From Methylovorus glucosotrophus (lineage in GTDB: Bacteria; Pseudomonadota; Gammaproteobacteria; Burkholderiales; Methylophilaceae), in contig NZ_VMSE01000001.1 in the NCBI RefSeq assembly GCF_009858335.1, positions 62,001 to 126,000 of the forward strand: 64,000 nt of DNA. Direction: 5' to 3'. Positions 53,248 to 64,000 of this stretch are shown piece by piece; position 1 is the stretch's first letter, and each line of letters opens with the position of its first letter. The notes below the pieces were generated by a model. That model saw only the letters and a list, made by a program, of their open reading frames with translations. It was not told where the DNA came from and made no database searches. The position numbers and the translations under genes were made by a program.

Positions 53248-53775
53248 TCAGCTTTTGCCGTAGCGTTTTTTTGCCTGTTCGCGACAGGCATTCTGTTCGT
53301 TGCCACTCAAGGCTGAACATTTCTTGAGGGCATCATCCAGCTGGGCTTCGGTGCGGTTGTCGGGCATGCGTTCGGCAGCGATGGCGGTAAATGCACTGTC
53401 GCGCTCACCCCTCGCCTTGCTGATGCATACGCGCTTGGTGTCCTCTTCTATCATGCCCTGGCAGGTTTGCTTGGCCACGTTGTAATTGGACTCGGCTTTT
53501 TCCTGCTCGGCTTCTATCCATGCCGCCTGACTGCCTTTGAACTGCGCTTCCAGCTCGGTGAGCTGAATATTGCGGTTGGCGCGCGCCTGCTCAAGGCAGA
53601 CTTCGCTGTCATTGCCACTAACGTGGTCGCACAGGGCTTTCTCTTGTTGATAAGCTTCCTGCACCCGCACTTTGCCCGCTTCGTAATTGGGTTTGCTGAT
53701 GGGGGCCGCATGGGCGACCGCGCCAATCAGCAACAGGAGCAGGCTGGCATGGCGAATCAGATGATGAGTCTGCAT
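53248..53775 (-). CDS. Exported protein with three cysteine-pair repeats
   Basis: 175 aa with a signal peptide (LLLLLIGAVAHA, cleavage near residue 23). The mature part is highly charged and helical. It carries three related units: CDHVSGNDSEVCLEQARANR, CQGMIEEDTKRVCISKARGE and CSALSGNEQNACREQAKKRY. Each has two cysteines about ten residues apart followed by an (A)R/K-rich segment; the pairs probably form disulphides in the periplasm. Function unknown. It lies 16 bases after the CsbD-like gene on the same strand. Confidence 0.8.
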   Translation of the reverse strand: MQTHHLIRHASLLLLLIGAVAHAAPISKPNYEAGKVRVQEAYQQEKALCDHVSGNDSEVCLEQARANRNIQLTELEAQFKGSQAAWIEAEQEKAESNYNVAKQTCQGMIEEDTKRVCISKARGERDSAFTAIAAERMPDNRTEAQLDDALKKCSALSGNEQNACREQAKKRYGKS

Positions 53776-53791
53776 GCACGCTCCTTACGGC

Positions 53792-53998
53792 TTAATGCCA
53801 GGTAGAGTCCCGGCTAAAGCTCTCAATCTGTTTTTCGGCTTCTTCCTTGGAAATGCCATAGAGCTCCTGCAACTTGCCTGACAGCATTTCGCGGTTGCCC
53901 TTGATCTGTTCAAACTGGTCGTCGGTGAGCTTGCCCCACTGCTGACGCACCTTGCCTTTCAGTTGTTTCCAGTTACCTTCTACTTGGTCCCAGTTCAT
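53792..53998 (-). CDS. CsbD-like stress protein
   Basis: 68 aa. It begins MNWDQVEGNWKQLKGKVRQQ, the classical CsbD/YjbJ opening, and has the DDQFEQIKGNREMLSGKLQ helix. These small hydrophilic proteins are induced by general stress; their molecular role is not established. A strong ribosome binding site (AAAGGAGATCAGC) precedes the start. A 159-base gap separates it from the glycan cluster end, with only a weak hairpin (54128-54153). Confidence 0.93.
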   Translation of the reverse strand: MNWDQVEGNWKQLKGKVRQQWGKLTDDQFEQIKGNREMLSGKLQELYGISKEEAEKQIESFSRDSTWH

Positions 53999-54157: not shown

Positions 54158-55261
54158 TTATTCGAGCGGTTGCAAGCGCGCGTATGTCTTACGAAAATCG
54201 GAAACCCGCTGTTCTATGATCTCGCCAGGGATGGATGGCCGTGTAGCCTGTGCCGACCCTTGCTGGGTGCGCTCACATGCCAGCTTGTCTTCCTGAAAGA
54301 TAAGATGGGTGAAGTGTATGTTTTCCTTCATGATGGACTGCATGATGATTTTGCCGCGTGGCGTTTGATTATCGAATTTGGCAGAAAATATCTTGGAATA
54401 GACGGTGGTGGAGTCAACGCCATTCGGGCGGAAATGCTGGACGTGAAAACTGTATCCCAGAAAAGAGGTAACGGTCAGATTGGGAAATACCAGTCTATGT
54501 ACGTAGTGCTCGAACATAAAAGGCCATTGGCCTATGTCGTTCTGGTAGCGCGACCAGCGTTCCAGCCACTTTTTATTCGCCTTGTTATTGACGGAGCTGT
54601 GACCGGTCGGCGGCATAAATTCCAGCGAGTCTTCATTCTCCTGGCTGAACTGTATTTCGGTGGCTTTTGCCAGACTGGAGCGATGCACCAGGGGTACGTG
54701 ATATCCCTCCAGGGAGTTTTCGATCACGATTTTCCAGTTCGCCTGAATATGGGATTCGTGGGTATCAATACATTGATCGAGCCCCGCCGATACCTTGGTC
54801 AGGAAATCATAGGCATCCCCCAGAAACGTGGGCAGGTCGGAGTCTCCCGGGTTCATGCGCACGAACACAAAATCCCCCGCCTTTGCTACTTCCAGTTTTT
54901 GCAGATTGAAGGCCTGAGGATTGGCGGTGACGGCAGGAAACGCTTTTTTGCACGGAATGCCGACCGGGGTGCCTTCTGCGTTGTAGTGCCAGCCATGGTA
55001 TGGGCAGGTCAATGGCCGATTGCCACAGGGGGTGTCATGGATGATGGAATGCCGGTGGCTGCAGACATTGATAAAGGCATGCAGGTCGCCATGAAGATTC
55101 TGAATGATGACATCACGCCCGGCCAGATTTACCCGCACGAAATCGTTGTGCGTTGCCAGCTCATGCGTCAAACCCGCATATAGCCATTGCTGGGCGAAAA
55201 GCTCGGCTTGCTCGCGGGCAAAAATGGCAGGATCGCAATAGATGTGAGGGGCGTTTGTCAT
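54158..55261 (-). CDS. Rieske-type non-haem iron oxygenase (Glu-bridge variant)
   Basis: 367 aa from the ATG at 55261 (MTNAPHIYCDPAIFAREQ); a start at 55333 would overlap the upstream gene and adds atypical residues. The Rieske cluster ligands are Cys67, His69, Cys86 and His89 (CSHRH, CPYHGW). The mononuclear iron site is ENSLEGYHVPLVH, with His188 and His193. The bridging position between the two sites is Glu185 rather than the usual Asp, as in carnitine oxygenase CntA and relatives. It would oxygenate or demethylate a substrate. It needs a reductase, and none is encoded in the window. Last gene of the cluster, 31 bases after the acyltransferase-like gene. Confidence 0.9.
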   Translation of the reverse strand: MTNAPHIYCDPAIFAREQAELFAQQWLYAGLTHELATHNDFVRVNLAGRDVIIQNLHGDLHAFINVCSHRHSIIHDTPCGNRPLTCPYHGWHYNAEGTPVGIPCKKAFPAVTANPQAFNLQKLEVAKAGDFVFVRMNPGDSDLPTFLGDAYDFLTKVSAGLDQCIDTHESHIQANWKIVIENSLEGYHVPLVHRSSLAKATEIQFSQENEDSLEFMPPTGHSSVNNKANKKWLERWSRYQNDIGQWPFMFEHYVHRLVFPNLTVTSFLGYSFHVQHFRPNGVDSTTVYSKIFSAKFDNQTPRGKIIMQSIMKENIHFTHLIFQEDKLACERTQQGSAQATRPSIPGEIIEQRVSDFRKTYARLQPLE

Positions 55262-55292
55262 GGGAGCGATTAGCGTGTCGAAAGAGGCGTCA

Positions 55293-55931
55293 TTATTTTT
55301 GGAAAAAATAGACCGGGGCCCGAAAGCGGGCATCCAGGAACACGGCGTTTGGGGGCGATGCGGTTAGCGTGGTTGGATAATGGATGGTGGACCATGTGGG
55401 TAACACCACGCCGGGGCCAATGACGACGCCCTGAGCCAAGGTGCAGTTCTTGCCGATGCTGGCGCCTTCTGAAATGACGCTCTGCGCGCCTATCCAGCAC
55501 GAACTGCCAATCTTGGCCTCCGCATCAATCTGGGCTCCCTGCATAATCCAGGTATTGGCGCCTATATTGGCGGGGGCGAGAACGCGTGCGCCATGGTCAA
55601 TGAAGACATTTTCGCGCAGCTTCACGCCATCTGAGATTGATGCCGTGGAGCTGCAGATGGCCGCAATCGCATAGCCCATCCGTTTGACATCCATATAAGC
55701 CGCCAGCCGTTGCTGGTTGAGATGCTGCTCATCCCCGGCAATAAAGGCACTGACGTCTTGCTTGTCGAAGGCAGGCAGTGTGGCCAGGGTATACAGCGGG
55801 ATGCCATGTCGCGTTGCCGTGGTGGCATTCTCGACCACGATGCCCACGATGTCGTATAAAGCCGCGTGCTTTATTTCATGGACAAGGCGGGCGAGTGAAG
55901 GACTTTCACCAAAAATCAGCAGTTTTTTCAT
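55293..55931 (-). CDS. NeuD/PglD-like left-handed beta-helix protein, likely lacking the catalytic His
   Basis: 212 aa. The N-terminal Rossmann-like part begins LLIFGESPSLARLVHEI, without the usual GxSGxG-type nucleotide loop. Hexapeptide repeats follow (IGANTWIMQGAQIDAEAKIG and on). Aligned to PglD, the catalytic base His in the HDxxIG-type motif is replaced by Gln (QGAQIDAEAKIG). It may be a non-catalytic partner, or an acyltransferase with another mechanism. It overlaps the Rieske gene upstream by 4 bases and precedes the second one by 31, so it is wedged between the two oxygenases. Confidence 0.8.
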   Translation of the reverse strand: MKKLLIFGESPSLARLVHEIKHAALYDIVGIVVENATTATRHGIPLYTLATLPAFDKQDVSAFIAGDEQHLNQQRLAAYMDVKRMGYAIAAICSSTASISDGVKLRENVFIDHGARVLAPANIGANTWIMQGAQIDAEAKIGSSCWIGAQSVISEGASIGKNCTLAQGVVIGPGVVLPTWSTIHYPTTLTASPPNAVFLDARFRAPVYFFQK

Positions 55932-57058
55932 CGAGTAGTGCTGGGCTCGGAGGCGCCTGTCTGGGCCAGATAGGCAGCATGAAAATCAAGAATACCCGTT
56001 TCATAAGCCCCGTGGATGAAATCACTATCGCTGGACGCCAGATTGCGCTGCAAAGCTTCCAGGCACTCGATGTCCTCCTGCAAAACGGTCATGTCACTCA
56101 GCAAGTGTTCCCACAGCACGACCGGCTTGTGCGGGAAGTCTGCCAGGGGGCGGGTTAATGCCACCATCATGTGCATTTCTGTTTTGTCAGCAGCGAGTGG
56201 GTTATAGGTTTGAATCGCAAACGAGGTGCCATCCACGATCATGAGGTTGACATTGGGGAACAGATGGAAGGTCTGGTAGCGCCCCTTGCTATCCAGATGC
56301 GCGACCAGGGTTTGCCAGTCCAGCTCGGGGGCAGACTGCATGGCAATGCCGCCTATGGTGGTGGCTTGCGGCAAGCTGGCGTTCTGCGACTGGTAAATGG
56401 CGTCCTTGCCCTGAATGGACGGGTCACTGGGGATATCGACCCGAAAATGCTTGGGAAAGGTGGATTTATGCAGGCAGGGCACATGCAAAGCATCCTTGAT
56501 ATTTTCCATGCCGGTTTTCCAGTTGAAGTCACCTTCATACCGCGTGTAAATGAACGCAGAATCCATTTGTCCGGTATAGGTCTCCAGCAGCGATACGGTG
56601 TGCGCATCAAACTGCTCTTCCATCGGCAAAGGGTCTTCACTGAGATTGACGAAAATCAGGCTGCCAATCACTTTTACCGGGTATTGCGCGAGCCGGATGT
56701 CTTGCGTTTCCTCCGCGGCAAAATTGAATACCTTGGGATCTTTGTGCGTATGCGTAAGCTGGCCATCCTGGTTATAACACCAGTGATGGTAAGGGCACAC
56801 CAGGCCGCGGTTGCCAAATTCTTCTGACTGTATGCGTGCCATGCGATGACGGCAGATATTGGAAAACGCCCGTATCACCCCGCCATGGTTTTGCAGCACG
56901 ACAGGCTTGCCAGCGAGGGTGAGCGTTCGATAATCAAGATGCTTTTGCAGCATGGGGGTAACGCCAGCCAGGAGCCACAGACGATTGAAAATCGTCTTTA
57001 GCTCCGTGTCGAACCATGCTTTCGACGTGTAATGCTGTGGGCTTAATAAAGGGCGCAT
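55928..57058 (-). CDS. Rieske-type non-haem iron oxygenase (Asp-bridge)
   Basis: 376 aa. Rieske ligands: Cys69, His71, Cys88 and His91 (CRHRM, CPYHHW). Mononuclear iron site MENIKDALHVPCLH with His192 and His197; bridging Asp189. It differs clearly from the oxygenase at 54158, so the two are not a recent duplicate. The third iron ligand is likely in LQEDIECLEALQ. Substrate unknown; cluster context suggests a sugar or acyl-sugar. It needs an external electron donor. It starts 28 bases after the FkbM gene and overlaps the next gene by 4. Confidence 0.9.
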   Translation of the reverse strand: MRPLLSPQHYTSKAWFDTELKTIFNRLWLLAGVTPMLQKHLDYRTLTLAGKPVVLQNHGGVIRAFSNICRHRMARIQSEEFGNRGLVCPYHHWCYNQDGQLTHTHKDPKVFNFAAEETQDIRLAQYPVKVIGSLIFVNLSEDPLPMEEQFDAHTVSLLETYTGQMDSAFIYTRYEGDFNWKTGMENIKDALHVPCLHKSTFPKHFRVDIPSDPSIQGKDAIYQSQNASLPQATTIGGIAMQSAPELDWQTLVAHLDSKGRYQTFHLFPNVNLMIVDGTSFAIQTYNPLAADKTEMHMMVALTRPLADFPHKPVVLWEHLLSDMTVLQEDIECLEALQRNLASSDSDFIHGAYETGILDFHAAYLAQTGASEPSTTR

Positions 57059-57086
57059 GCTGGCACGATATCCTCTTGAGGCAAGA

Positions 57087-58310
57087 TCACACGCCGTAGA
57101 TGCATAACACGCCCGGCTCCAGGGACTGGTGACGGAGCGATAACTGGTAATCCAGCCCGGTTTCTTCTATGTACTTGAGCAGATCAGGGAAATCGGTTGC
57201 CTTGTGATAGGCAGATACGGTCAGGGTCGGCCGGTTTTTCAAAATCAGCTGGTTGGCGCCGTGCAGGGCTTCCAGTTCAGCCCCCTCAATTTCGAGGCGC
57301 AAGTGGGTCAGCTCGTCCAGCATATCGTCCAGGCGGCACACATGCAGGCCAAAACCGGAGGAGGAAGCCTGATCCGTTATGGTGACACCAGAGTCATAAC
57401 CTTCGGCATACAGATAGGCATTGCGATCAAACACCCCGAGCTCATGGCAGTAAATTGGCTTGGCGCCATGACGTGCCGTGTAGTTGGCGATATTGTTGGA
57501 GAGATTGATAAAGTTGGTGTGGTCGGGCTCAAAGGCGTGTACTGCCTTGAATTGGTGTTTAACCCGCTCGGCAAAAATCAGGACTTCCTGACCATCATGT
57601 GAGCCGCAGTCGGCATAGACGGTCTGTGCATTCAATTTGAGATCAATGTCAGGCGAAAAGTAACGCTGGCGATAATCACCGCAGTGGAAAGCAAAATACT
57701 GGTGATTCATGCTGATGAAGGCGGCGAGCGTGTAGTAGTAAGTCTGCAGCGAAAGATCATCGACCCAGTGGCGTTCCAGCGCCAGGAACTCATCAAAGCG
57801 CTCCAGCATGACATCCGCATGCAGGCGATAAGAGCCACCCGCGGCTTCCAGCCCCGGTGCATTGAGGAATTGCTCAACGCGCAATACGGTAAAGCCCGCT
57901 TGCTTGAGCCGGACTTTGTAGCGGATGCCCGGATACCAGGTGCAGGTGCGGTCAACAATCAGGCAGCCTTTGTATGCTTCCGGATTGGCAAAAAAAGTAT
58001 CGGCGTTCAGCTGGGTATATCCGGCGATATGCGGATTTTGCAGGTTGTCCTTGTCATCTACGTCATGCACCAAGGCTTCAATGCGCCCCCCTTTCAGGCG
58101 CACTGCCGCTTCAATCTGGTCCAGCTGCTGGCAAAAGCCCAGGCCGCGGGTACTGAAGACAATCACGCGCATTTCGGCGGTATTGTTGATCAATTCCCCT
58201 GCCGTTTCCGGGAAGTAGGCATGCCGGTCTTCCTGGCAGCGGGCATGGATCTTCAGCAGGTTATCGCGGGCCAGCTGGGTGGCGTTATCGGGTTTTGGTA
58301 ATGCGCTCAT
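57087..58310 (-). CDS. FkbM-family methyltransferase with a long N-terminal region
   Basis: 407 aa. Residues ~225-400 are an FkbM-type SAM-dependent methyltransferase: motif I VYADCGSHDGQE (231-240), AFEPDHTNFINL, and the LRLEIEGAELEALHG segment typical of the family (canonical IKIDVEGAE). FkbM proteins usually O-methylate sugars. The N-terminal ~220 residues resemble nothing I recognise; they include VIVFSTRGLGFCQQLD and a CTWYPGIRYKVRL segment, and may bind the acceptor. It overlaps the NeuD-like gene by 4 bases. Confidence 0.85.
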   Translation of the reverse strand: MSALPKPDNATQLARDNLLKIHARCQEDRHAYFPETAGELINNTAEMRVIVFSTRGLGFCQQLDQIEAAVRLKGGRIEALVHDVDDKDNLQNPHIAGYTQLNADTFFANPEAYKGCLIVDRTCTWYPGIRYKVRLKQAGFTVLRVEQFLNAPGLEAAGGSYRLHADVMLERFDEFLALERHWVDDLSLQTYYYTLAAFISMNHQYFAFHCGDYRQRYFSPDIDLKLNAQTVYADCGSHDGQEVLIFAERVKHQFKAVHAFEPDHTNFINLSNNIANYTARHGAKPIYCHELGVFDRNAYLYAEGYDSGVTITDQASSSGFGLHVCRLDDMLDELTHLRLEIEGAELEALHGANQLILKNRPTLTVSAYHKATDFPDLLKYIEETGLDYQLSLRHQSLEPGVLCIYGV

Positions 58311-59038
58311 AGGGCTTTGCTTTCGCTATTGGTTTCCGGTTTCCAGTCGAATCGATGGGCTGGATTTCCGATAACCGTGGTATTGGCAGAAACATGTTTG
58401 AAGACAACACTGCCCGCCGCGACGACGGCATTTTCCCCTATACGGGATTTGGCAGTAACGACTGAGCCTGGATGAATGCGGGCGCCGCTGGCAATGCTTA
58501 CATTCCCTGCAATCAGGCAGTGGGCGCCGATTTCCACCCAGTCGGCCACATCGGTATCGTGGGCAATCGCGGTGTAGCTGCTGACGGTCACATGCTGGCC
58601 GATGCGGCTATCCGGCGACAAACTGGCATAAGGGCCGATGATGCTGCCTTTGCCAATCGCGGCAAAGGTGGAGACTGCTGCCAGCGGATGCACCAGCCGG
58701 ATAAATTGTGCGCCTTTTTCAATCAGGGGTTCCGTATATTTTCGACGATCCGCCGGGTTGCCTATGGCGCACAAAAACACATCGTCTGCTTCTGGTACAT
58801 AACTCAAGGGATCCCCCAGCACCGGGTAATCACGCCGGTAACGCAGCCGTTTTTCTTCCGTATAGTCCATGGCGTCAGGCAATTCTGCCGCGTGTGTTGC
58901 AAAGCCATCCAGAATGCCGGGGCGGTTATCCAGAAAGCCTTTGATAACCCAGTCCAACTGGTGGGATGGGTTATCAATGGCCATCATCAATACTTCTCTA
59001 CCGAATCCACTGGCGCCAATAATGATTAAATTTTTCAT
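58307..59038 (-). CDS. NeuD/PglD-type sugar acyltransferase
   Basis: 243 aa. An N-terminal nucleotide-sugar domain (LIIIGASGFGREVLMMAI), and a left-handed beta-helix with the catalytic His in AIAHDTDVADWVEIGAHC, as in PglD. Such enzymes N-acylate amino sugars, using acetyl-CoA or, in some clusters, an acyl-ACP. Because an ACP and KASIII sit just upstream, an acyl-ACP donor is plausible here. The start lies 19 bases after the second SDR gene. Confidence 0.88.
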   Translation of the reverse strand: MKNLIIIGASGFGREVLMMAIDNPSHQLDWVIKGFLDNRPGILDGFATHAAELPDAMDYTEEKRLRYRRDYPVLGDPLSYVPEADDVFLCAIGNPADRRKYTEPLIEKGAQFIRLVHPLAAVSTFAAIGKGSIIGPYASLSPDSRIGQHVTVSSYTAIAHDTDVADWVEIGAHCLIAGNVSIASGARIHPGSVVTAKSRIGENAVVAAGSVVFKHVSANTTVIGNPAHRFDWKPETNSESKAL

Positions 59039-59057
59039 GCGCTAGGTCAGCTCATCA

Positions 59058-59813
59058 TCAGTGGGTGATCCCGCCATCCATGATCAGCGTGGTACCGGTG
59101 ATCCAGCGACTGGCAGGCGAGAGAAAGAAAATGGCGGCATTGGCGACATCTTCCGGCGTCCCCAGACCCAGAGGATGAATGGCCCGCTGCTGATCCAGCC
59201 ATTCGCCAGTAGGCATATTGGCGCCGGAACCATGCAGCATGGGGGTTTCCACCAGGTCGGGTGCCAGGCAGTTCACCCGGATACCACGTTTGGCGGTTTC
59301 CAGGGCCAGGCAACGGGCGGCGGCAATCAGGGCGGCCTTGGTACCGGCATAAATACTGGTGCCGTGCACGCCTCGCACGGCTGCTGTGGAGGACATGAAG
59401 AGAACGGCGCCATCCTTGTTGATCTTGTTCTTCGCCAGCAGCTGGTTGGTGAGCAATTGCGGCGTGAACACATTGATGTTGTAGAGGCGCTCTATGAATT
59501 CGCGTTTGGCCATGCGGGCTGGCATGGGGATGGAAATACCGGTGCAATGCACCACGCCGTCGATGTTGCCAGCCTGCTCGACGGTGGCCGTGATCGCATC
59601 ATCAGTGGTCAAGTCGCCGAGTATGGTGACGTGACCGCTGCCTGCCAGTTGGCTCAGGGTTTCCTGCAGGCGTTCCGGATTTCTGCCACAGATAATTAGC
59701 GTGGCGCCAGCCGCTGCACAAGAAATGGCAATCTGTCGGCCCAGGCCCGATGAGGCGCCGGTGACCAGAATGCGTTTGTTCGCCATGGAAAAAGGATTGT
59801 TGATCTGGGTCAT
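59058..59813 (-). CDS. Short-chain dehydrogenase/reductase (FabG-like), second of a pair
   Basis: 251 aa. Cofactor motif ILVTGASSGLGRQIAIS, catalytic Ser in FMSSTAAVRG, and YxxxK in YAGTKAAL. It closely resembles the neighbouring gene at 59816 but is clearly distinct. The pair could reduce ketoacyl-ACP intermediates, or one could act on the sugar. It starts 2 bases after the first SDR stop. Confidence 0.9.
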   Translation of the reverse strand: MTQINNPFSMANKRILVTGASSGLGRQIAISCAAAGATLIICGRNPERLQETLSQLAGSGHVTILGDLTTDDAITATVEQAGNIDGVVHCTGISIPMPARMAKREFIERLYNINVFTPQLLTNQLLAKNKINKDGAVLFMSSTAAVRGVHGTSIYAGTKAALIAAARCLALETAKRGIRVNCLAPDLVETPMLHGSGANMPTGEWLDQQRAIHPLGLGTPEDVANAAIFFLSPASRWITGTTLIMDGGITH

Positions 59814-59815
59814 GA

Positions 59816-60586
59816 TTATTGGGCACTAATCTGGCAAGTCAGGCCGCCATCTACATACAGGGTGGCGCGCGTAATCCAGCGCGAAGCCGGGGCGAGCAGG
59901 AACACGGCGCTGTTGGCGACATCTTCCGGCACGCCTTTCCCCAAGGGTGGTTCGGTTACGGTCGCCATGCTGCCGCCCATGCCTTGTTCAGCCAGGCGTT
60001 TCAGCATAGGCGTTTCAATGTAGCTCACCGCCATGTAGTTCACGCGTATCTGTTGTTTGGGCCCCACTTCCAGAGCAAGGGCACGCCCTGCGGGACGCAA
60101 TGCAGCCTTGCTGGCGGAGTAGATGCTGGACCCTTTGGTGCCGATATGGGCAGCAATGGAGCCTATGAAAACGATGGAGCCTTCTTGGGCAATTTGTTTC
60201 TTGGCCAGTAATTGCTGGGTAAGAAGCAAGGGTGCATCCAGATTGATGCTGAAGTCGCGATGGATGAAGTCTTCATCAATCTGCCGGAATAGCCGCACGG
60301 CGGCTGTGCCTGCACTATGTACCAGGCCATCAATCACGCCCGCCTGGCTTACCAAGGCTGCACGCTGCTCGGCGCTGGTAAGGTCAGCCGCCACGCAGAT
60401 ATGGCCTTCACCCGTCATGGCGGCGCGTGTTTCTTCCAGGCGTGCGCTATCGCGTCCGGTGAGCACTACCTGGGCGCCAGCGGCGGCGACGCCAATCGCC
60501 ACGGCTTGTCCTAGTCCGGACGAAGCGCCTGTGACCAATACCCGCTTGCCATGCAGGCTGAATGCTTCAAGGTTGAGTTCGCTCAT
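59816..60586 (-). CDS. Short-chain dehydrogenase/reductase (FabG-like), first of a pair
   Basis: 256 aa. Cofactor motif VLVTGASSGLGQAVAIG, catalytic YSASKAAL, and Ser in IGSIAAHIG. The C-terminus has the WITRATLYVDGG ending usual in FabG-type reductases. It is probably the 3-oxoacyl-ACP reductase for the product of the KASIII gene upstream, which it overlaps by 4 bases. Confidence 0.9.
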   Translation of the reverse strand: MSELNLEAFSLHGKRVLVTGASSGLGQAVAIGVAAAGAQVVLTGRDSARLEETRAAMTGEGHICVAADLTSAEQRAALVSQAGVIDGLVHSAGTAAVRLFRQIDEDFIHRDFSINLDAPLLLTQQLLAKKQIAQEGSIVFIGSIAAHIGTKGSSIYSASKAALRPAGRALALEVGPKQQIRVNYMAVSYIETPMLKRLAEQGMGGSMATVTEPPLGKGVPEDVANSAVFLLAPASRWITRATLYVDGGLTCQISAQ

Positions 60587-61638
60587 ATTTCAATCAAGGG
60601 TGGAAGATAAGCGTTCTCAATGTTCAGAATGCAGGATGCCCAGGATAATCCGACGCCAAACCCAGACAGCAAGAGGCGCTGAGGGCCTTGGGCCAGCGCT
60701 TCTTGCAGGCGCGTGTTGATGGTGACCGGAATTGATGCCGAACTGGTGTTGCCAAAATCCTTGAGCGACATGGGGACTTTTTCGGCTGGCAGGCCCAGTT
60801 TTTTACGTATGGTTTCGTTGATCATGCGGTTGGCCTGATGGAAAACAAAATAATCAATGTCTTCCAGGCTGAATGGCGAGAATTCAACCAGTTGTGCGAC
60901 CGAGACAGGTACTTCGCGTATCGAGAAATTGAGAATGGAAGGACCATCCAGAATCACGTCAGTGCCTTTGCGCGAGATACCATCGGCACCGGGCAGGCGC
61001 TCCAGATGGTGCGGCTGTATGGGCACGCGTTGACCACCGGCTTCGATAATGATGGCTTTATGGCCGCTGCCATCGCTCCCCATATTGAAATACATGGGTT
61101 GGGCTGTTTCATCAAACTCAAGGGCGGTGGCGGTAGCAGCATCGCCAAACAGCGAGAGCAGGCCGTTGTCCAGCGACAGCGGGTTGGAGGATTTATCGCC
61201 CACCAGCATGATGCCGCGTTTCAAGCCATGGGCAGACAGCATGGAGCCCAGGGTAAACAGGCCATAGGCGTATCCTGAGCATCCCAGGTTGATATCAAAT
61301 GCGATGGTGCTATGTGGCAGGCCAAGCTTGTCCTGCAGAATGATCGCCGTGGCCGGAATCGGATAATCCGGCGATTGTGTCACCACAATCAGGGCGTCAA
61401 TCGATGACTTTTCCCACCCCAGGCCGGCAATCAGTTTTTCAGCAGCGACCAGGGCCAAATCGGAAAATACCACGCCCTCCAGGCAAACCCGACGGGTTTC
61501 TATCCCAATATTGCGAACCAGGCGTTCACGTTCAGAGCGTTGCTCCGGCGGACAATCCTGCACATTGGAGAAAGCACGTTCCGGGACACATGTGGTAAGT
61601 CCACGGTAGCGGACATTGTGGAGGACGGATTGAGCCAT
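60583..61638 (-). CDS. 3-oxoacyl-ACP synthase III (FabH-like)
   Basis: 351 aa condensing enzyme. The catalytic triad is present: Cys120 in NLGCSGYAYGL, His267 in VFHQAN, and Asn297 in DFGNTSSASIP. It would condense an acyl-CoA starter with malonyl-ACP. It lies in a glycan cluster and not next to fabD/fabG/acpP, so it is a secondary, pathway-specific FabH. It starts 3 bases after the ACP stop. Other KASIII-type proteins transfer acyl chains instead; the sequence does not decide this. Confidence 0.92.
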   Translation of the reverse strand: MAQSVLHNVRYRGLTTCVPERAFSNVQDCPPEQRSERERLVRNIGIETRRVCLEGVVFSDLALVAAEKLIAGLGWEKSSIDALIVVTQSPDYPIPATAIILQDKLGLPHSTIAFDINLGCSGYAYGLFTLGSMLSAHGLKRGIMLVGDKSSNPLSLDNGLLSLFGDAATATALEFDETAQPMYFNMGSDGSGHKAIIIEAGGQRVPIQPHHLERLPGADGISRKGTDVILDGPSILNFSIREVPVSVAQLVEFSPFSLEDIDYFVFHQANRMINETIRKKLGLPAEKVPMSLKDFGNTSSASIPVTINTRLQEALAQGPQRLLLSGFGVGLSWASCILNIENAYLPPLIEI

Positions 61639-61641
61639 GGC

Positions 61642-61866
61642 TTAGGCAACCAATTTATAAATATCGGTGATGGTCTGGCAGTTGGAAAGATCATTGCCGG
61701 TGATGGTTTTTTTGTATTCCATATCGCACATCACGATTACCCCCAGCGCTGCGAGCGAATCCCATTCGGGCAAGGTTTCCAGTCTGGTATCTGCCGATAC
61801 CTCGACAGGCTCCTGAAAATCCACTGCTTCATTGAATTTTTCGATGAATGTTTCAATTGTGCTCAT
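61642..61866 (-). CDS. Acyl carrier protein, pathway-specific
   Basis: 74 aa. The phosphopantetheine attachment site is Ser37 in LPEWDSLAALGVI, a DSL motif. It is acidic and helical, as expected for an ACP. It is the first gene of the nine-gene run that includes KASIII, two reductases and acyltransferases. It is probably loaded by the housekeeping transferases. Confidence 0.93.
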   Translation of the reverse strand: MSTIETFIEKFNEAVDFQEPVEVSADTRLETLPEWDSLAALGVIVMCDMEYKKTITGNDLSNCQTITDIYKLVA

Positions 61867-61912
61867 AGCGACCTTTATACGATTTATAGAGTGAGAAGGA
61901 AGAGTCTGAATT

Positions 61913-61944
61913 TATTGTCGTCTTTAAATTTGTTATCGACAATA
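61913..61944 (-). promoter_or_regulatory. Inverted repeat and possible promoter upstream of the ACP operon
   Basis: TATTGTCG (61913-61920) and CGACAATA (61937-61944) form an exact 8-base inverted repeat, 46 bases upstream of the ACP start. The minus-strand reading gives TTGTCG (61942-61937), 17 bases, GACAAT (61919-61914) as a possible -35/-10 pair that lies on the two arms. It could be an operator covering the promoter. The rest of the 204-base gap shows nothing further. Confidence 0.4.
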
Positions 61945-62070
61945 TACCGGATTTATTTAGGGGTATTTGAGCGGGTGCCTTGTGGAACGTGCCTTTGAAG
62001 GCCATGCCCGTCGACGCAAAGCGTTCGGTTTCATGAAAACCCTGGCCGTGGATGCGCTTGATTGGCAGGC

Positions 62071-63213
62071 TCATGCGGTCACCGCCATGGCCACATGCTG
62101 GCTCACTTCTGCCATTTGCCCCCTGGTCAGCATGGGGAAAAATGGCAGGCCAATCAGGTCTGCACTTACCGCTTCTGCCGTGGGGGTGGGCAGGTGGACA
62201 ATCGGGCCCACCTTGGCCGCATGCTGATGCAACAAGGGTTGATACCAGCGTCGCGTGCTGATCCTGCTGACGGCGCATAACTGCTCAAGCTTGCTGCGAC
62301 GCCCACTGCTCCCCAGCCGCACGCTGAATGTCGTGGGAGCGGCGGGAGCGGGCCCCTGTTGCCAGATCAATGCATCGCCACACGCTTGTTGCAGGGTTTC
62401 CCGGTATTGCAGAAACACGGCATGCCGCAGGTCCGCCTGGGTTTGCCAGCTATTCAGGCTGGCAAGCCCGACTGCTGCGTGATATTCGGATAGTTTGGCA
62501 TTGGTGCCGGCGTAACTGAGGTGGCCCACCGGATGATCCGTATCCGGACTGAGGTTAATGCCGAAATTGCTCAATTCCTTGATCATGCGGCGCTGGCCGG
62601 GCTGGCCCGTCACCACAAAGCCGCCTTCCCCTGCCGCCAGCGATTTAGTGGCATGCATGCTGAAAACGACTGGAATATCCACCGCCTCTACCCATTGTGA
62701 TCCATAGGCCGCTGCGGCATCGATTATCACCCTTACGCCATGGCGCTGCTGCCATGCACTCCAGGCTCGCGTGTCCTGCGCCTGGCCGAAGGTCGCCACC
62801 GCAATGACGGCCTGGCAATCGCTTTCCCGCATGCAGTCGTCCGCAATGTCTGGGGTCAATAACCAGTTGTCCGGATCAATATCGCAAATCACCGGCAGAT
62901 GACCCGCGCGCAAAATGGCGGTCAAGCTGGCGACAAAGGTGAGCGCCGGCACCAGCACACGTGACCCCGGCGGTAACTCCAGGCTGCTCAGTGCCAGCTC
63001 AAGTCCCGCGGTTGCGCTGCTCACGGTCACCACCTCAAGGGGCAGCGATGCGTGGGTGGAATAGTCTGTCGCCAGGCGTTGTTCCAGCTCTTGTACCAAG
63101 GGACCAAAATTGGAGTAGTGGCGGCTAAGATCTATCCTGTCCAGAAAGGGTTGCAGTGCCAGCCGGTCGGGCAGTTGGGGAACCAGTAATGGGATGCCTT
63201 GGGGATGGGACAT
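62071..63213 (-). CDS. DegT/DnrJ/EryC1-family sugar aminotransferase
   Basis: 380 aa PLP enzyme that usually aminates a keto-sugar nucleotide. PLP-binding Asp165 in IIDAAAAYG, and catalytic Lys190 in FSMHATKSLAAGEGG. The YSNFGPLVQELE start and the AKLSEYHAAVGLASL stretch are typical. It would supply the amino group that the acyltransferase later acylates. It follows the glycosyltransferase by 3 bases. No sugar 4,6-dehydratase is in the window, so the substrate must come from elsewhere. Confidence 0.9.
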   Translation of the reverse strand: MSHPQGIPLLVPQLPDRLALQPFLDRIDLSRHYSNFGPLVQELEQRLATDYSTHASLPLEVVTVSSATAGLELALSSLELPPGSRVLVPALTFVASLTAILRAGHLPVICDIDPDNWLLTPDIADDCMRESDCQAVIAVATFGQAQDTRAWSAWQQRHGVRVIIDAAAAYGSQWVEAVDIPVVFSMHATKSLAAGEGGFVVTGQPGQRRMIKELSNFGINLSPDTDHPVGHLSYAGTNAKLSEYHAAVGLASLNSWQTQADLRHAVFLQYRETLQQACGDALIWQQGPAPAAPTTFSVRLGSSGRRSKLEQLCAVSRISTRRWYQPLLHQHAAKVGPIVHLPTPTAEAVSADLIGLPFFPMLTRGQMAEVSQHVAMAVTA

Positions 63214-63216
63214 GCA

Positions 63217-64000
63217 TTATCCTTTGGCAGGGCTGCCACTGGCCCGCAATGCCGCCATTTTTTCTTCCTGCGCGGGGGTCGCCACCTGAAAGTCCTGAAA
63301 CAGGTGTTCACCCAGCAGGTAGTTATGCCAAAGCCTGCGATAGGCTGTTTCCAGCTCGGTGCAGCGTGTCTGGTAATCCATCAATACACTGCCCAGCATG
63401 CGCTCGCGAATAACGCTTCGCATGGAGGCAAGCTGCTCGGGGTCATCCAGTAATCTCAGTATGATCTCGATATAGTCGTCATCGCTTTGGGCGATCCAGT
63501 CGCTGAACCCCAGGCCGGTCAGGGTGCATGCCGTGGCGGAAGAGACTGCTTCGTCTGCATCCAGCGTTACCACCGGCAAGCCCATCCAGAGTGTATGCAG
63601 GGTGGTGGTGCCACCTGACACCGGCGCAGTATCCAGCGCTACATCTACCAGGCTCCCACGTTCCATGAACTCATCCAGCGGTACCATGGGCGATACGATA
63701 ATCCGATCCAGCGGCATATCCAGCTCGACCAGACGTGGCTCTATGGTGTGGATAGCATCGTCGATGGTGTTTTCCTGCACATGCAGCAGAAGCTGGATGT
63801 CAGGGCGTCGTTCCATGATGCGTTTCCATAATCGCAGCATGTGATCGGTGACTTTACGCGAGCTGTTGAGGCAGCCGATGGTGGGCGGATTGCCCTGCAA
63901 CATGGGTGGGGTTTCCATCAAAGGGGCATGGGCTGGCGGAATATAGCTGGCCATGCATGCCAGGCGATACAGCTTTTCCAGGTAATAGGATTCATGCCCA
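63217..64000 (-). CDS. OGT/SPINDLY-like glycosyltransferase, C-terminal part (cut by window end)
   Basis: At least 260 codons; the frame stays open to base 64000 (GHESYYLEKLYRLA precedes the first internal Met). It has the GT41-type features: NSSRKVTDHMLRLWKRIM, PLDEFMERGSLVDVALDT, and the nucleotide-binding SGGTTTLHTLWMGLPVVTL. Bacterial members often have TPR repeats and modify flagellin or other surface proteins. The N-terminal part is outside the window. The 3' end is 3 bases before the aminotransferase gene. Confidence 0.85.
   Translation of the reverse strand, partial: GHESYYLEKLYRLACMASYIPPAHAPLMETPPMLQGNPPTIGCLNSSRKVTDHMLRLWKRIMERRPDIQLLLHVQENTIDDAIHTIEPRLVELDMPLDRIIVSPMVPLDEFMERGSLVDVALDTAPVSGGTTTLHTLWMGLPVVTLDADEAVSSATACTLTGLGFSDWIAQSDDDYIEIILRLLDDPEQLASMRSVIRERMLGSVLMDYQTRCTELETAYRRLWHNYLLGEHLFQDFQVATPAQEEKMAALRASGSPAKG

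What the first reader, a model, noticed from the sequence alone, without database searches (positions are those of the whole stretch)
54158..64000. Packed glycan-decoration cluster with its own ACP/KASIII, two Rieske oxygenases and an OGT-like glycosyltransferase
Eleven leftward genes, most with gaps under 35 bases or overlaps of 4. Seen in sequence: GT41-like transferase, DegT aminotransferase, ACP, KASIII, two SDRs, NeuD/PglD acyltransferase, FkbM methyltransferase, two Rieske oxygenases and a second beta-helix protein. From known pathways: flagellin of Pseudomonas syringae carries a 4-(3-hydroxybutanamido)-4,6-dideoxy-2-O-methyl sugar, and ACP/KASIII/SDR genes occur in Pseudomonas flagellin glycosylation islands. 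The aminotransferase, acyltransferase, methyltransferase, ACP, KASIII and SDRs fit such a product. The two oxygenases do not and suggest an extra hydroxylation or oxidative demethylation. Inference: an oxygenated acyl-amino sugar on flagellin or another surface polymer.
Basis: partly seen in the sequence, partly recalled or inferred. Interest (0 to 1): 0.78.

Follow-up and report, generated by a model that had tools for sequence, protein, structure and literature searches.

The report
Flagellin sugar-decorating cluster with Rieske oxygenases
A packed set of eleven genes in a methylotrophic bacterium probably builds an acylated amino sugar for its flagella and then oxidises it with iron-sulfur oxygenases, enzymes better known from pollutant breakdown.

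Summary
In detail: eleven leftward genes, 54158-64000; the last runs on to 64929. Most likely it is an acyl-amino-sugar pathway for flagellin glycosylation with oxygenases as an optional tailoring part. Local neighbours (thiG, thiDE) say nothing about flagella; relatives do. The window's GT41 falls in a clade (100/100) whose four members outside the family lie beside motAB and/or fliC. In a separate draw of 299 genomes the Rieske occurs in two, both clusters beside fliC. Xanthomonas has the same order in its flagellar cluster, which I saw in print only as table rows (PMC3826837). NeuD's best solved relative is VioB. New to me: of 34 clusters compared, the 28 with Rieske2 all hold a NeuD-like beta-helix partner and 26 two SDRs; the 6 without hold neither. 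The partner lacks the NeuD GNPA motif (0 of 29) and mostly its catalytic His (5 of 29), so it may not be an ordinary acyltransferase. Limits: no chemistry tested; 11 of 20 named clusters have neither flagellar nor pilin neighbours and some lie beside pilin genes; no flagellar-type promoter found in this genome. New variant of a known kind.

The parts
63217..64000 (-). GT41 (OGT-like) glycosyltransferase with TPRs, cut by the window end; complete gene C1:125217-126929, 570 aa (window 63217-64929)
   Evidence: Pfam PF13844 and TPR; clade with flagellar-locus GT41s
62071..63213 (-). DegT-type sugar-nucleotide aminotransferase, VioA-like role
   Evidence: PF01041; best NCBIfam DesI, below its cut-off; best PDB 2po3, labelled '4-dehydrase'
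61642..61866 (-). acyl carrier protein with EWDSLAA motif
   Evidence: sequence; D[SA]L motif in 28 of 29 compared; no Pfam or NCBIfam hit
60583..61638 (-). KASIII-type 3-oxoacyl-ACP synthase (VioS-like role)
   Evidence: PF08541/PF08545; best PDB 4efi
59816..60586 (-). SDR of the 'first' clade, which goes with Rieske2 and its beta-helix partner
59058..59813 (-). SDR of the general type, probably the 3-oxoacyl-ACP reductase (VioR-like role)
   Evidence: role inferred
58307..59038 (-). NeuD/VioB-type N-acyltransferase with His at the catalytic position
   Evidence: TIGR03570 over cut-off; best PDB VioB 7txp; column count
57087..58310 (-). FkbM-family methyltransferase
   Evidence: PF05050 and TIGR01444 over cut-off
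55928..57058 (-). Rieske oxygenase of subfamily 2 (NIKDALHVPCLH)
   Evidence: model pLDDT 80.6; fold search
55293..55931 (-). left-handed beta-helix protein, companion of Rieske2; NeuD/PerB fold without conserved catalytic His or GNPA
54158..55333 (-). Rieske oxygenase of subfamily 1 (NSLEGYHVPLVH); start may be at codon 25

Best explanation
A flagellin-glycosylation cluster of the viosamine type with an oxygenase tailoring module, sited at the thiG locus in Methylophilaceae. Proposed working: RmlB (found elsewhere in the genome) and RmlA (assumed, not searched) supply dTDP-4-keto-6-deoxyglucose; DegT makes the 4-amino sugar; ACP, KASIII and the general SDR make a short 3-hydroxyacyl-ACP; the VioB-like NeuD puts it on the amino group; FkbM O-methylates; Rieske2, with its beta-helix partner and the extra SDR, oxidises sugar or acyl; Rieske1 adds a second oxidation, perhaps on the acyl; the TPR-GT41 enzyme transfers the sugar to flagellin. 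Shown: gene content, intact motifs, recurrent order, co-occurrence, flagellar neighbourhoods of relatives. Inferred: every chemical step, their order, and the acceptor in this organism.
For: GT41 tree (36 rows): the window's GT41 is in a 15-row clade (100/100); its four rows from outside the family (L076, L077, L092, L162) lie beside motAB and/or fliC, and no pilin-locus row is inside. Of 20 named KASIII+Rieske loci, 6 have flagellar and 3 pilin genes, against 0 of 58 Rieske loci without KASIII (caveats in the full report). Separate draw: 2 of 299 genomes had the Rieske at E <= 1e-60, both clusters beside fliC, fliD and fliS. Xanthomonas: same order next to FleQ (L096) and in a printed table XCV2007-2013 below fleQ (PMC3826837). 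All 10 family genomes with the thiG-locus cluster have flagellin, against 63 of 140 others. G043, without detected flagellin or cluster, keeps only a long-branched GT41. NeuD's best PDB hit is VioB. Tested precedent in P. syringae: PMC3927599. RmlB over cut-off in the genome.
Against: No flagellar or pilin gene in the window or to C1:180000 by tblastn with 24 flagellar and one pilin query. 11 of 20 named clusters have neither flagellar nor pilin neighbours in the stretch held. Four related clusters lie beside pilin-like genes: L079 (Pfam-confirmed), L082, L083, L163 (tblastn only). G015, without flagellin, carries three divergent Rieskes in a polysaccharide region. A FliA-type motif lies upstream of GT41 in 4 of 11 family genomes, not in this one. 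No reductase for the Rieskes is in the cluster. Counts over related genomes are not independent.
Confidence: 0.7

Rival explanations
1. Same kind of sugar, other acceptor: type IV pilin or a surface polysaccharide rather than flagellin.
For: Clusters beside pilin-like genes in L079 (both sides), L082, L083, L163; a pilin-adjacent GT41 in a family member, L169; Rieske and LbH-like genes in a polysaccharide region of G015, which has no detected flagellin.
Against: The four pilin-locus GT41 rows in the tree lie outside the window's clade; all ten thiG-locus genomes have flagellin.
Confidence: 0.17
2. Chemistry rival: the Rieskes are oxidative O- or N-demethylases that remove or convert a methyl group, not hydroxylases.
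For: Best fold hits of Rieske2 are stachydrine demethylase (4quq), with CntA (6zgp) close behind; best NCBIfam for both is glycine betaine monooxygenase, far below cut-off; 21 of 28 Rieske2 loci show an FkbM gene.
Against: 7 of 28 show none by tblastn, though divergent ones can be missed, as in L073 where Pfam finds one. Fold neighbours at about 20% identity do not fix the substrate.
Confidence: 0.2
3. A small secondary-metabolite or lipid pathway unrelated to surface glycans.
For: KASIII, ACP and Rieske genes also occur in such pathways (general knowledge); in L095 a Rieske relative follows a 2832-aa protein that looks like a polyketide synthase by eye.
Against: No elongating synthase, dehydratase or loading enzyme among the eleven genes; GT41, DegT and VioB-like genes; flagellar and pilin neighbourhoods in relatives.
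Confidence: 0.04

Closest known systems
Viosamine island of Pseudomonas syringae pv. tabaci 6605 (vioA, vioM, vioT, vioS, vioB, vioR, acp; PMC3927599)
   Same: Aminotransferase, ACP, KASIII, SDR reductase, VioB-type acyltransferase and a methyltransferase; mutants change the flagellin glycan by mass spectrometry.
   Different: Its seven listed ORFs include no Rieske and no beta-helix partner, and one reductase; VioT has 1173 aa and adds to rhamnose. Here: two Rieskes, beta-helix partner, two SDRs, a 570-aa GT41.
Glycosylation genes in the Xanthomonas flagellar cluster (XCV2000-2013, PMC3826837; probably the gigX island, my inference)
   Same: Order aminotransferase, ACP, KASIII, SDR, SDR, acetyltransferase, Rieske, then a 'hypothetical'; in L096 the beta-helix partner stands at that place.
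   Different: Inside the flagellar cluster next to FleQ; no Rieske1-type gene in L096, whose contig ends soon after; FkbM after, not before, the Rieske.
Burkholderiales clusters beside flagellar genes (Xylophilus ampelinus L076, Pseudorhodoferax soli L077)
   Same: Closest relatives of Rieske2 (69%) and close ones of FkbM (66-69%) and NeuD (67-69%); also a Rieske1 type (39-42%) and GT41 (47-51%).
   Different: Lie beside motAB or fliC; Rieske1 sits between SDR and NeuD.
Quaternary-ammonium Rieske monooxygenases (CntA, stachydrine demethylase)
   Same: Overall fold and iron motifs.
   Different: About 20% identity and other gene context; substrate unknown here.

Membership tests
Viosamine-type flagellin glycosylation island | aminotransferase, ACP, KASIII, SDR and VioB-type N-acyltransferase together | tested here: met
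Viosamine-type flagellin glycosylation island | VioM-type methyltransferase | tested here: inconclusive
   An FkbM methyltransferase is present; VioM sequence not at hand
Viosamine-type flagellin glycosylation island | VioT-type transferase (1173 aa) acting on rhamnose | tested here: inconclusive
   The transferase here is a 570-aa GT41; VioT sequence not compared
Viosamine-type flagellin glycosylation island | mutants change the flagellin glycan by mass spectrometry | not testable with these tools
   needs bench work
Rieske-bearing flagellar-cluster island (Xanthomonas/Burkholderiales) | DegT-ACP-KASIII-SDR-SDR-NeuD-Rieske-LbH order | tested here: met
   in the window FkbM stands between NeuD and Rieske2
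Rieske-bearing flagellar-cluster island (Xanthomonas/Burkholderiales) | located in or beside flagellar genes | tested here: not met
   no flagellar gene in the window or to C1:180000; so filed as a variant at another locus
Rieske non-heme iron oxygenases | C-x-H...C-x2-H cluster motif and H-x4-H iron site with acidic bridge | tested here: met
   both proteins
NeuD/PglD acyltransferases (for the beta-helix gene 55293-55931) | catalytic His (PerB H141 position) and C-terminal G[NV]PA motif | tested here: not met
   His in 5 of 29 partners against 22 of 30 NeuDs (PerB alignment); motif in 0 of 29 against 30 of 30
GT41 (OGT-like) glycosyltransferases | Glyco_transf_41 domain with TPRs | tested here: met

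The most novel reading that the evidence does not exclude
Rieske2, its histidine-less NeuD-like partner and the extra SDR form a new kind of nucleotide-sugar oxygenation unit: the beta-helix protein no longer acylates but holds the NDP-sugar for the oxygenase, so that glycans of surface appendages are diversified by Rieske chemistry.
Probability: 0.2. Interest if true: 0.75.

Novelty: new variant of a known kind. Interest (0 to 1): 0.52.

Why it matters
Flagellin glycans bear on filament assembly and on recognition by hosts (general knowledge), and their chemistry is mapped in few species. If right, a subfamily of Rieske oxygenases works in sugar decoration of flagella and perhaps pili, and its reaction can be read from mass shifts of one abundant protein. 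The pairing with a NeuD-like protein that has lost its catalytic histidine and GNPA motif gives a concrete biochemical question.

Tried and rejected
Rejected or weakened: (1) flagellar genes just beyond 64000: none in the window or to C1:180000 (by eye). (2) 'No Rieske in G017': an artefact of my greedy ORF picker; tblastn shows a Rieske1 type there. The same picker gave many antisense ORFs in GC-rich loci, so later counts rest on tblastn. (3) A sigma-28-type promoter upstream of the window's GT41: not found; the pattern is in 4 of 11 family genomes only (consensus recalled, not from a call). (4) Foreign origin by composition: G+C 0.554 in the cluster, 0.539 in the rest of the window, no signal. 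(5) Class-wide draw with the Xanthomonas Rieske: only the own genome of 369 matched at E <= 1e-50. (6) Paper searches: (10 papers listed; 1; 15 listed of 59; 5; 1) combined Rieske or dioxygenase with flagellin, pilin, glycosylation or sugar terms; I judged listings by title and opened only PMC3826837. Searches (8 listed of 17; 2) gave nothing on this cluster by title; passages of a survey of enterobacterial flagellin islands (PMC4875605) name ACP and FabG genes; the terms 'rieske' and 'oxygenase' do not occur in its main text. (7) In the SDR tree L045 was entered with one of its two SDRs and so mislabelled 'single'. (8) L181's gap between KASIII and SDR does not look like an SDR (by eye).
Full report
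Observation. The order is GT41 > DegT > ACP > KASIII > SDRb > SDRa > NeuD > FkbM > Rieske2 > LbH2 > Rieske1, with gaps of 3, 204, 3, -4, 2, 19, -4, 28, -4 and -41 bases. The window is C1:62001-126000 of a 2.9-Mb genome. The cut gene ends at C1:126929; then comes divergent thiG, with a short thiS-like frame between (my reading of the sequence, not scanned). In the window and on to C1:180000, 24 flagellar and one pilin query find nothing by tblastn at 1e-5, while the flagellar stretch L038 is found. The two flagellins lie about 2.1 Mb away among ordinary flagellar genes.

Organism. So the window is from a Methylovorus. In 150 genomes of the family the cluster-type KASIII occurs in 12 at E <= 1e-40. 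Ten have it beside thiG with a closely related GT41 (G000, G010, G016, G017, G030, G035, G052, G054, G061, G070; in G061 the script listed an antisense ORF at thiG's place). The other two, G015 and G120, have a divergent KASIII (40-44%). Downstream parts vary: G054 has no Rieske in the stretch, G017 only a Rieske1 type, G016 two Rieske2-LbH pairs. In G070 Rieske and NeuD genes are broken. So the core is stable and the oxygenases are optional.

Core pathway. NeuD's best solved relative is VioB, E 7e-23 against 6.7e-17 for the next; a VioB entry is titled as a complex with TDP-4-amino-4,6-dideoxyglucose (title cut). For DegT the best NCBIfam model is DesI (dTDP-4-dehydro-6-deoxyglucose aminotransferase), below its cut-off, and the best PDB entry 2po3 is labelled '4-dehydrase'. 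RmlB is elsewhere in the genome; RmlA was not searched. In P. syringae the seven-gene viosamine island makes dTDP-N-(3-hydroxy-1-oxobutyl)-2-O-methylviosamine for flagellin; vioR and vioM mutants were read by mass spectrometry (PMC3927599, two of five parts read). The window's core fits this; the transferase and the oxygenases differ.

Acceptor. I left out L075 and L087, which repeat family genomes already held. Of the other 78 loci, 20 hold KASIII (>= 40% identity) near a Rieske and 58 do not. Among the 20, six have flagellar genes at >= 30% identity (L076, L077, L081, L088, L092, L096), three have pilin-like genes (L079, L082, L083) and eleven have neither; among the 58 none has either (Fisher 9e-7; for loci of at least 15 kb 8 of 16 against 0 of 30, 5e-5). 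Caveats: the FleQ query came from L096 and the pilin query from L079, so L096 counts only through its own gene (L079 also has a second hit of 45%); without L096 the count is 8 of 20. A 24% FliA hit in L085 was dropped by the identity limit. Pfam confirms flagellin (L081), FliS (L077), MotB (L092), FleQ and sigma-54 (L096), sigma-70 and SRP54 domains (L088) and pilin (L079); the FlhG-like protein of L088 gave no hit. The pilin-like genes of L082, L083 and L163 were not scanned.

A separate draw of 299 genomes from one Burkholderiales family found the Rieske2 type in two at E <= 1e-60. Both clusters lie beside fliC, fliD and fliS with a 47-48% GT41; G843 has the window's order up to NeuD. Two further loci came from the order search with Rieske1 (4 of 300 genomes, two of them Methylovorus): L162 beside fliC and motA, L163 beside pilin-like genes.

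The GT41 tree (36 rows) puts the window's enzyme with the ten other thiG-locus copies, sister to four copies from other families that lie beside motAB and/or fliC (15 rows, 100/100). The four pilin-locus rows lie outside, and so do nine other flagellar-locus rows. G043, with no detected flagellin and no cluster KASIII, keeps a lone GT41 at the locus on a long branch (0.86 against 0.14 for its neighbour), as a relic would. All ten cluster genomes have flagellin against 63 of 140 others (p 5e-4, not independent). A FliA-type pattern (recalled consensus) lies upstream of GT41 in G010, G030, G052 and G054 but not in the three Methylovorus genomes, G016, G061, G070 or G043. It occurs 11 times in 370 kb searched on both strands: these four, one upstream of fliC, three in the flagellar stretch L160 and three elsewhere. 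I read this as modest support for the locus and none for this genome.

Oxygenases. Both have intact metal motifs. In a 75-row tree Rieske2-type genes form a 31-row clade (100/99) and Rieske1-type genes an 8-row clade (96/85), each made only of genes from KASIII loci; 33 other Rieskes and three long-branched rows from KASIII loci (one of L088, two of L163) fall outside. Across 34 KASIII loci, window included, 28 hold Rieske2. All 28 hold the LbH partner and 26 hold two SDR stretches; of the six without Rieske2 (L048, L073, L097, L098, L162, L163) none holds either (L077 and L181 have one SDR). In 18 of the two-SDR loci put in a tree, the SDR next to KASIII falls in one clade (100/98) and the eight true single SDRs fall outside it, so the extra SDR is the one next to KASIII. 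Rieske2 is directly followed by LbH in 29 of 30 cases in the rows (L040 broken, L047 divergent and L087 duplicate left out; window not in the list, where it also holds); in the two later loci L181 agrees and L180 has an FkbM gene between. Rieske1 sits between SDR and NeuD in L076 and L077 but is last in the window; this hints at the acyl part as its substrate.

The LbH partner. Its model (pLDDT 85.6) matches perosamine N-acetyltransferase PerB best (TM 0.83). Yet at the PerB H141 position it has His in 5 of 29 sequences, while NeuD has His in 22 and Tyr in 8 of 30. The C-terminal G[NV]PA motif is in 30 of 30 NeuDs and 0 of 29 partners. Invariants among 19 aligned partners are F63, N72, R75, G86, N108 and W146. 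A non-standard acyltransferase, perhaps acyl-ACP dependent (LpxD is the next best profile hit), and a sugar-nucleotide-binding partner of the oxygenase are both open. The eight NeuDs with Tyr suggest that loss of the His alone need not end acyl transfer.

In print. Of the listings I saw, the one relevant hit I opened is PMC3826837 (passages): a table row XCV2007 'Rieske 2Fe-2S family protein' next to XCV2008 acetyltransferase, in a run up to XCV2013 aminotransferase and XCV2014 FleQ, with a glycosyltransferase and FliE on the far side. A review (PMC8657755, passages) says gigx1-gigx10 are flagellin-glycosylation genes under RpoN2/FleQ; the primary paper is not held, so that the Rieske belongs to gigX is my inference. 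Hence a new variant of a known kind. What I did not meet in these searches is a description of the Rieske2-LbH-SDR module or of the lost NeuD histidine.

Electron supply. No reductase is among the eleven genes; five PF00970 genes lie elsewhere in the genome, two of them of ferredoxin-reductase type by eye.

Noticed in passing
L043 494-6801, L044 12741-19109, L045 11245-17618: Methylobacillus-type relatives extend the cluster with a cytidylyltransferase, a 2-hydroxyacid dehydrogenase, a protein with metallo-beta-lactamase and GT2 domains and an SDR (Pfam-scanned in L043 only); the Xanthomonas flagellar cluster table also lists a cytidylyltransferase, XCV2003.
   Followed up: partly
L040 7261-12208 (G070): Broken Rieske1, Rieske2 and NeuD genes in an otherwise syntenic cluster.
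   Followed up: no
between GT41 and thiG, beyond window base 64929, and its counterparts in ten relatives: A strongly conserved non-coding element (TATTTTACGTAGGTT ... AATTAGCAAAC) in the eleven aligned upstream regions, probably belonging to thiSG.
   Followed up: no
L046 8336-10782 and L047 5210-6298 (G015): Three divergent Rieske genes, some with LbH-like neighbours, in a polysaccharide region of a small genome without detected flagellin.
   Followed up: partly
window 53248-53998: A 175-aa secreted-looking orphan (no Pfam hit) and a CsbD-like gene lie just downstream of the cluster; look-alikes of the orphan are near the locus in L039, L041 and L048 by eye.
   Followed up: no
L166, L167, L169-L172: In other family members distant GT41 genes (28-33%) lie beside fliC, in one case (L169) beside a pilin gene.
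   Followed up: partly
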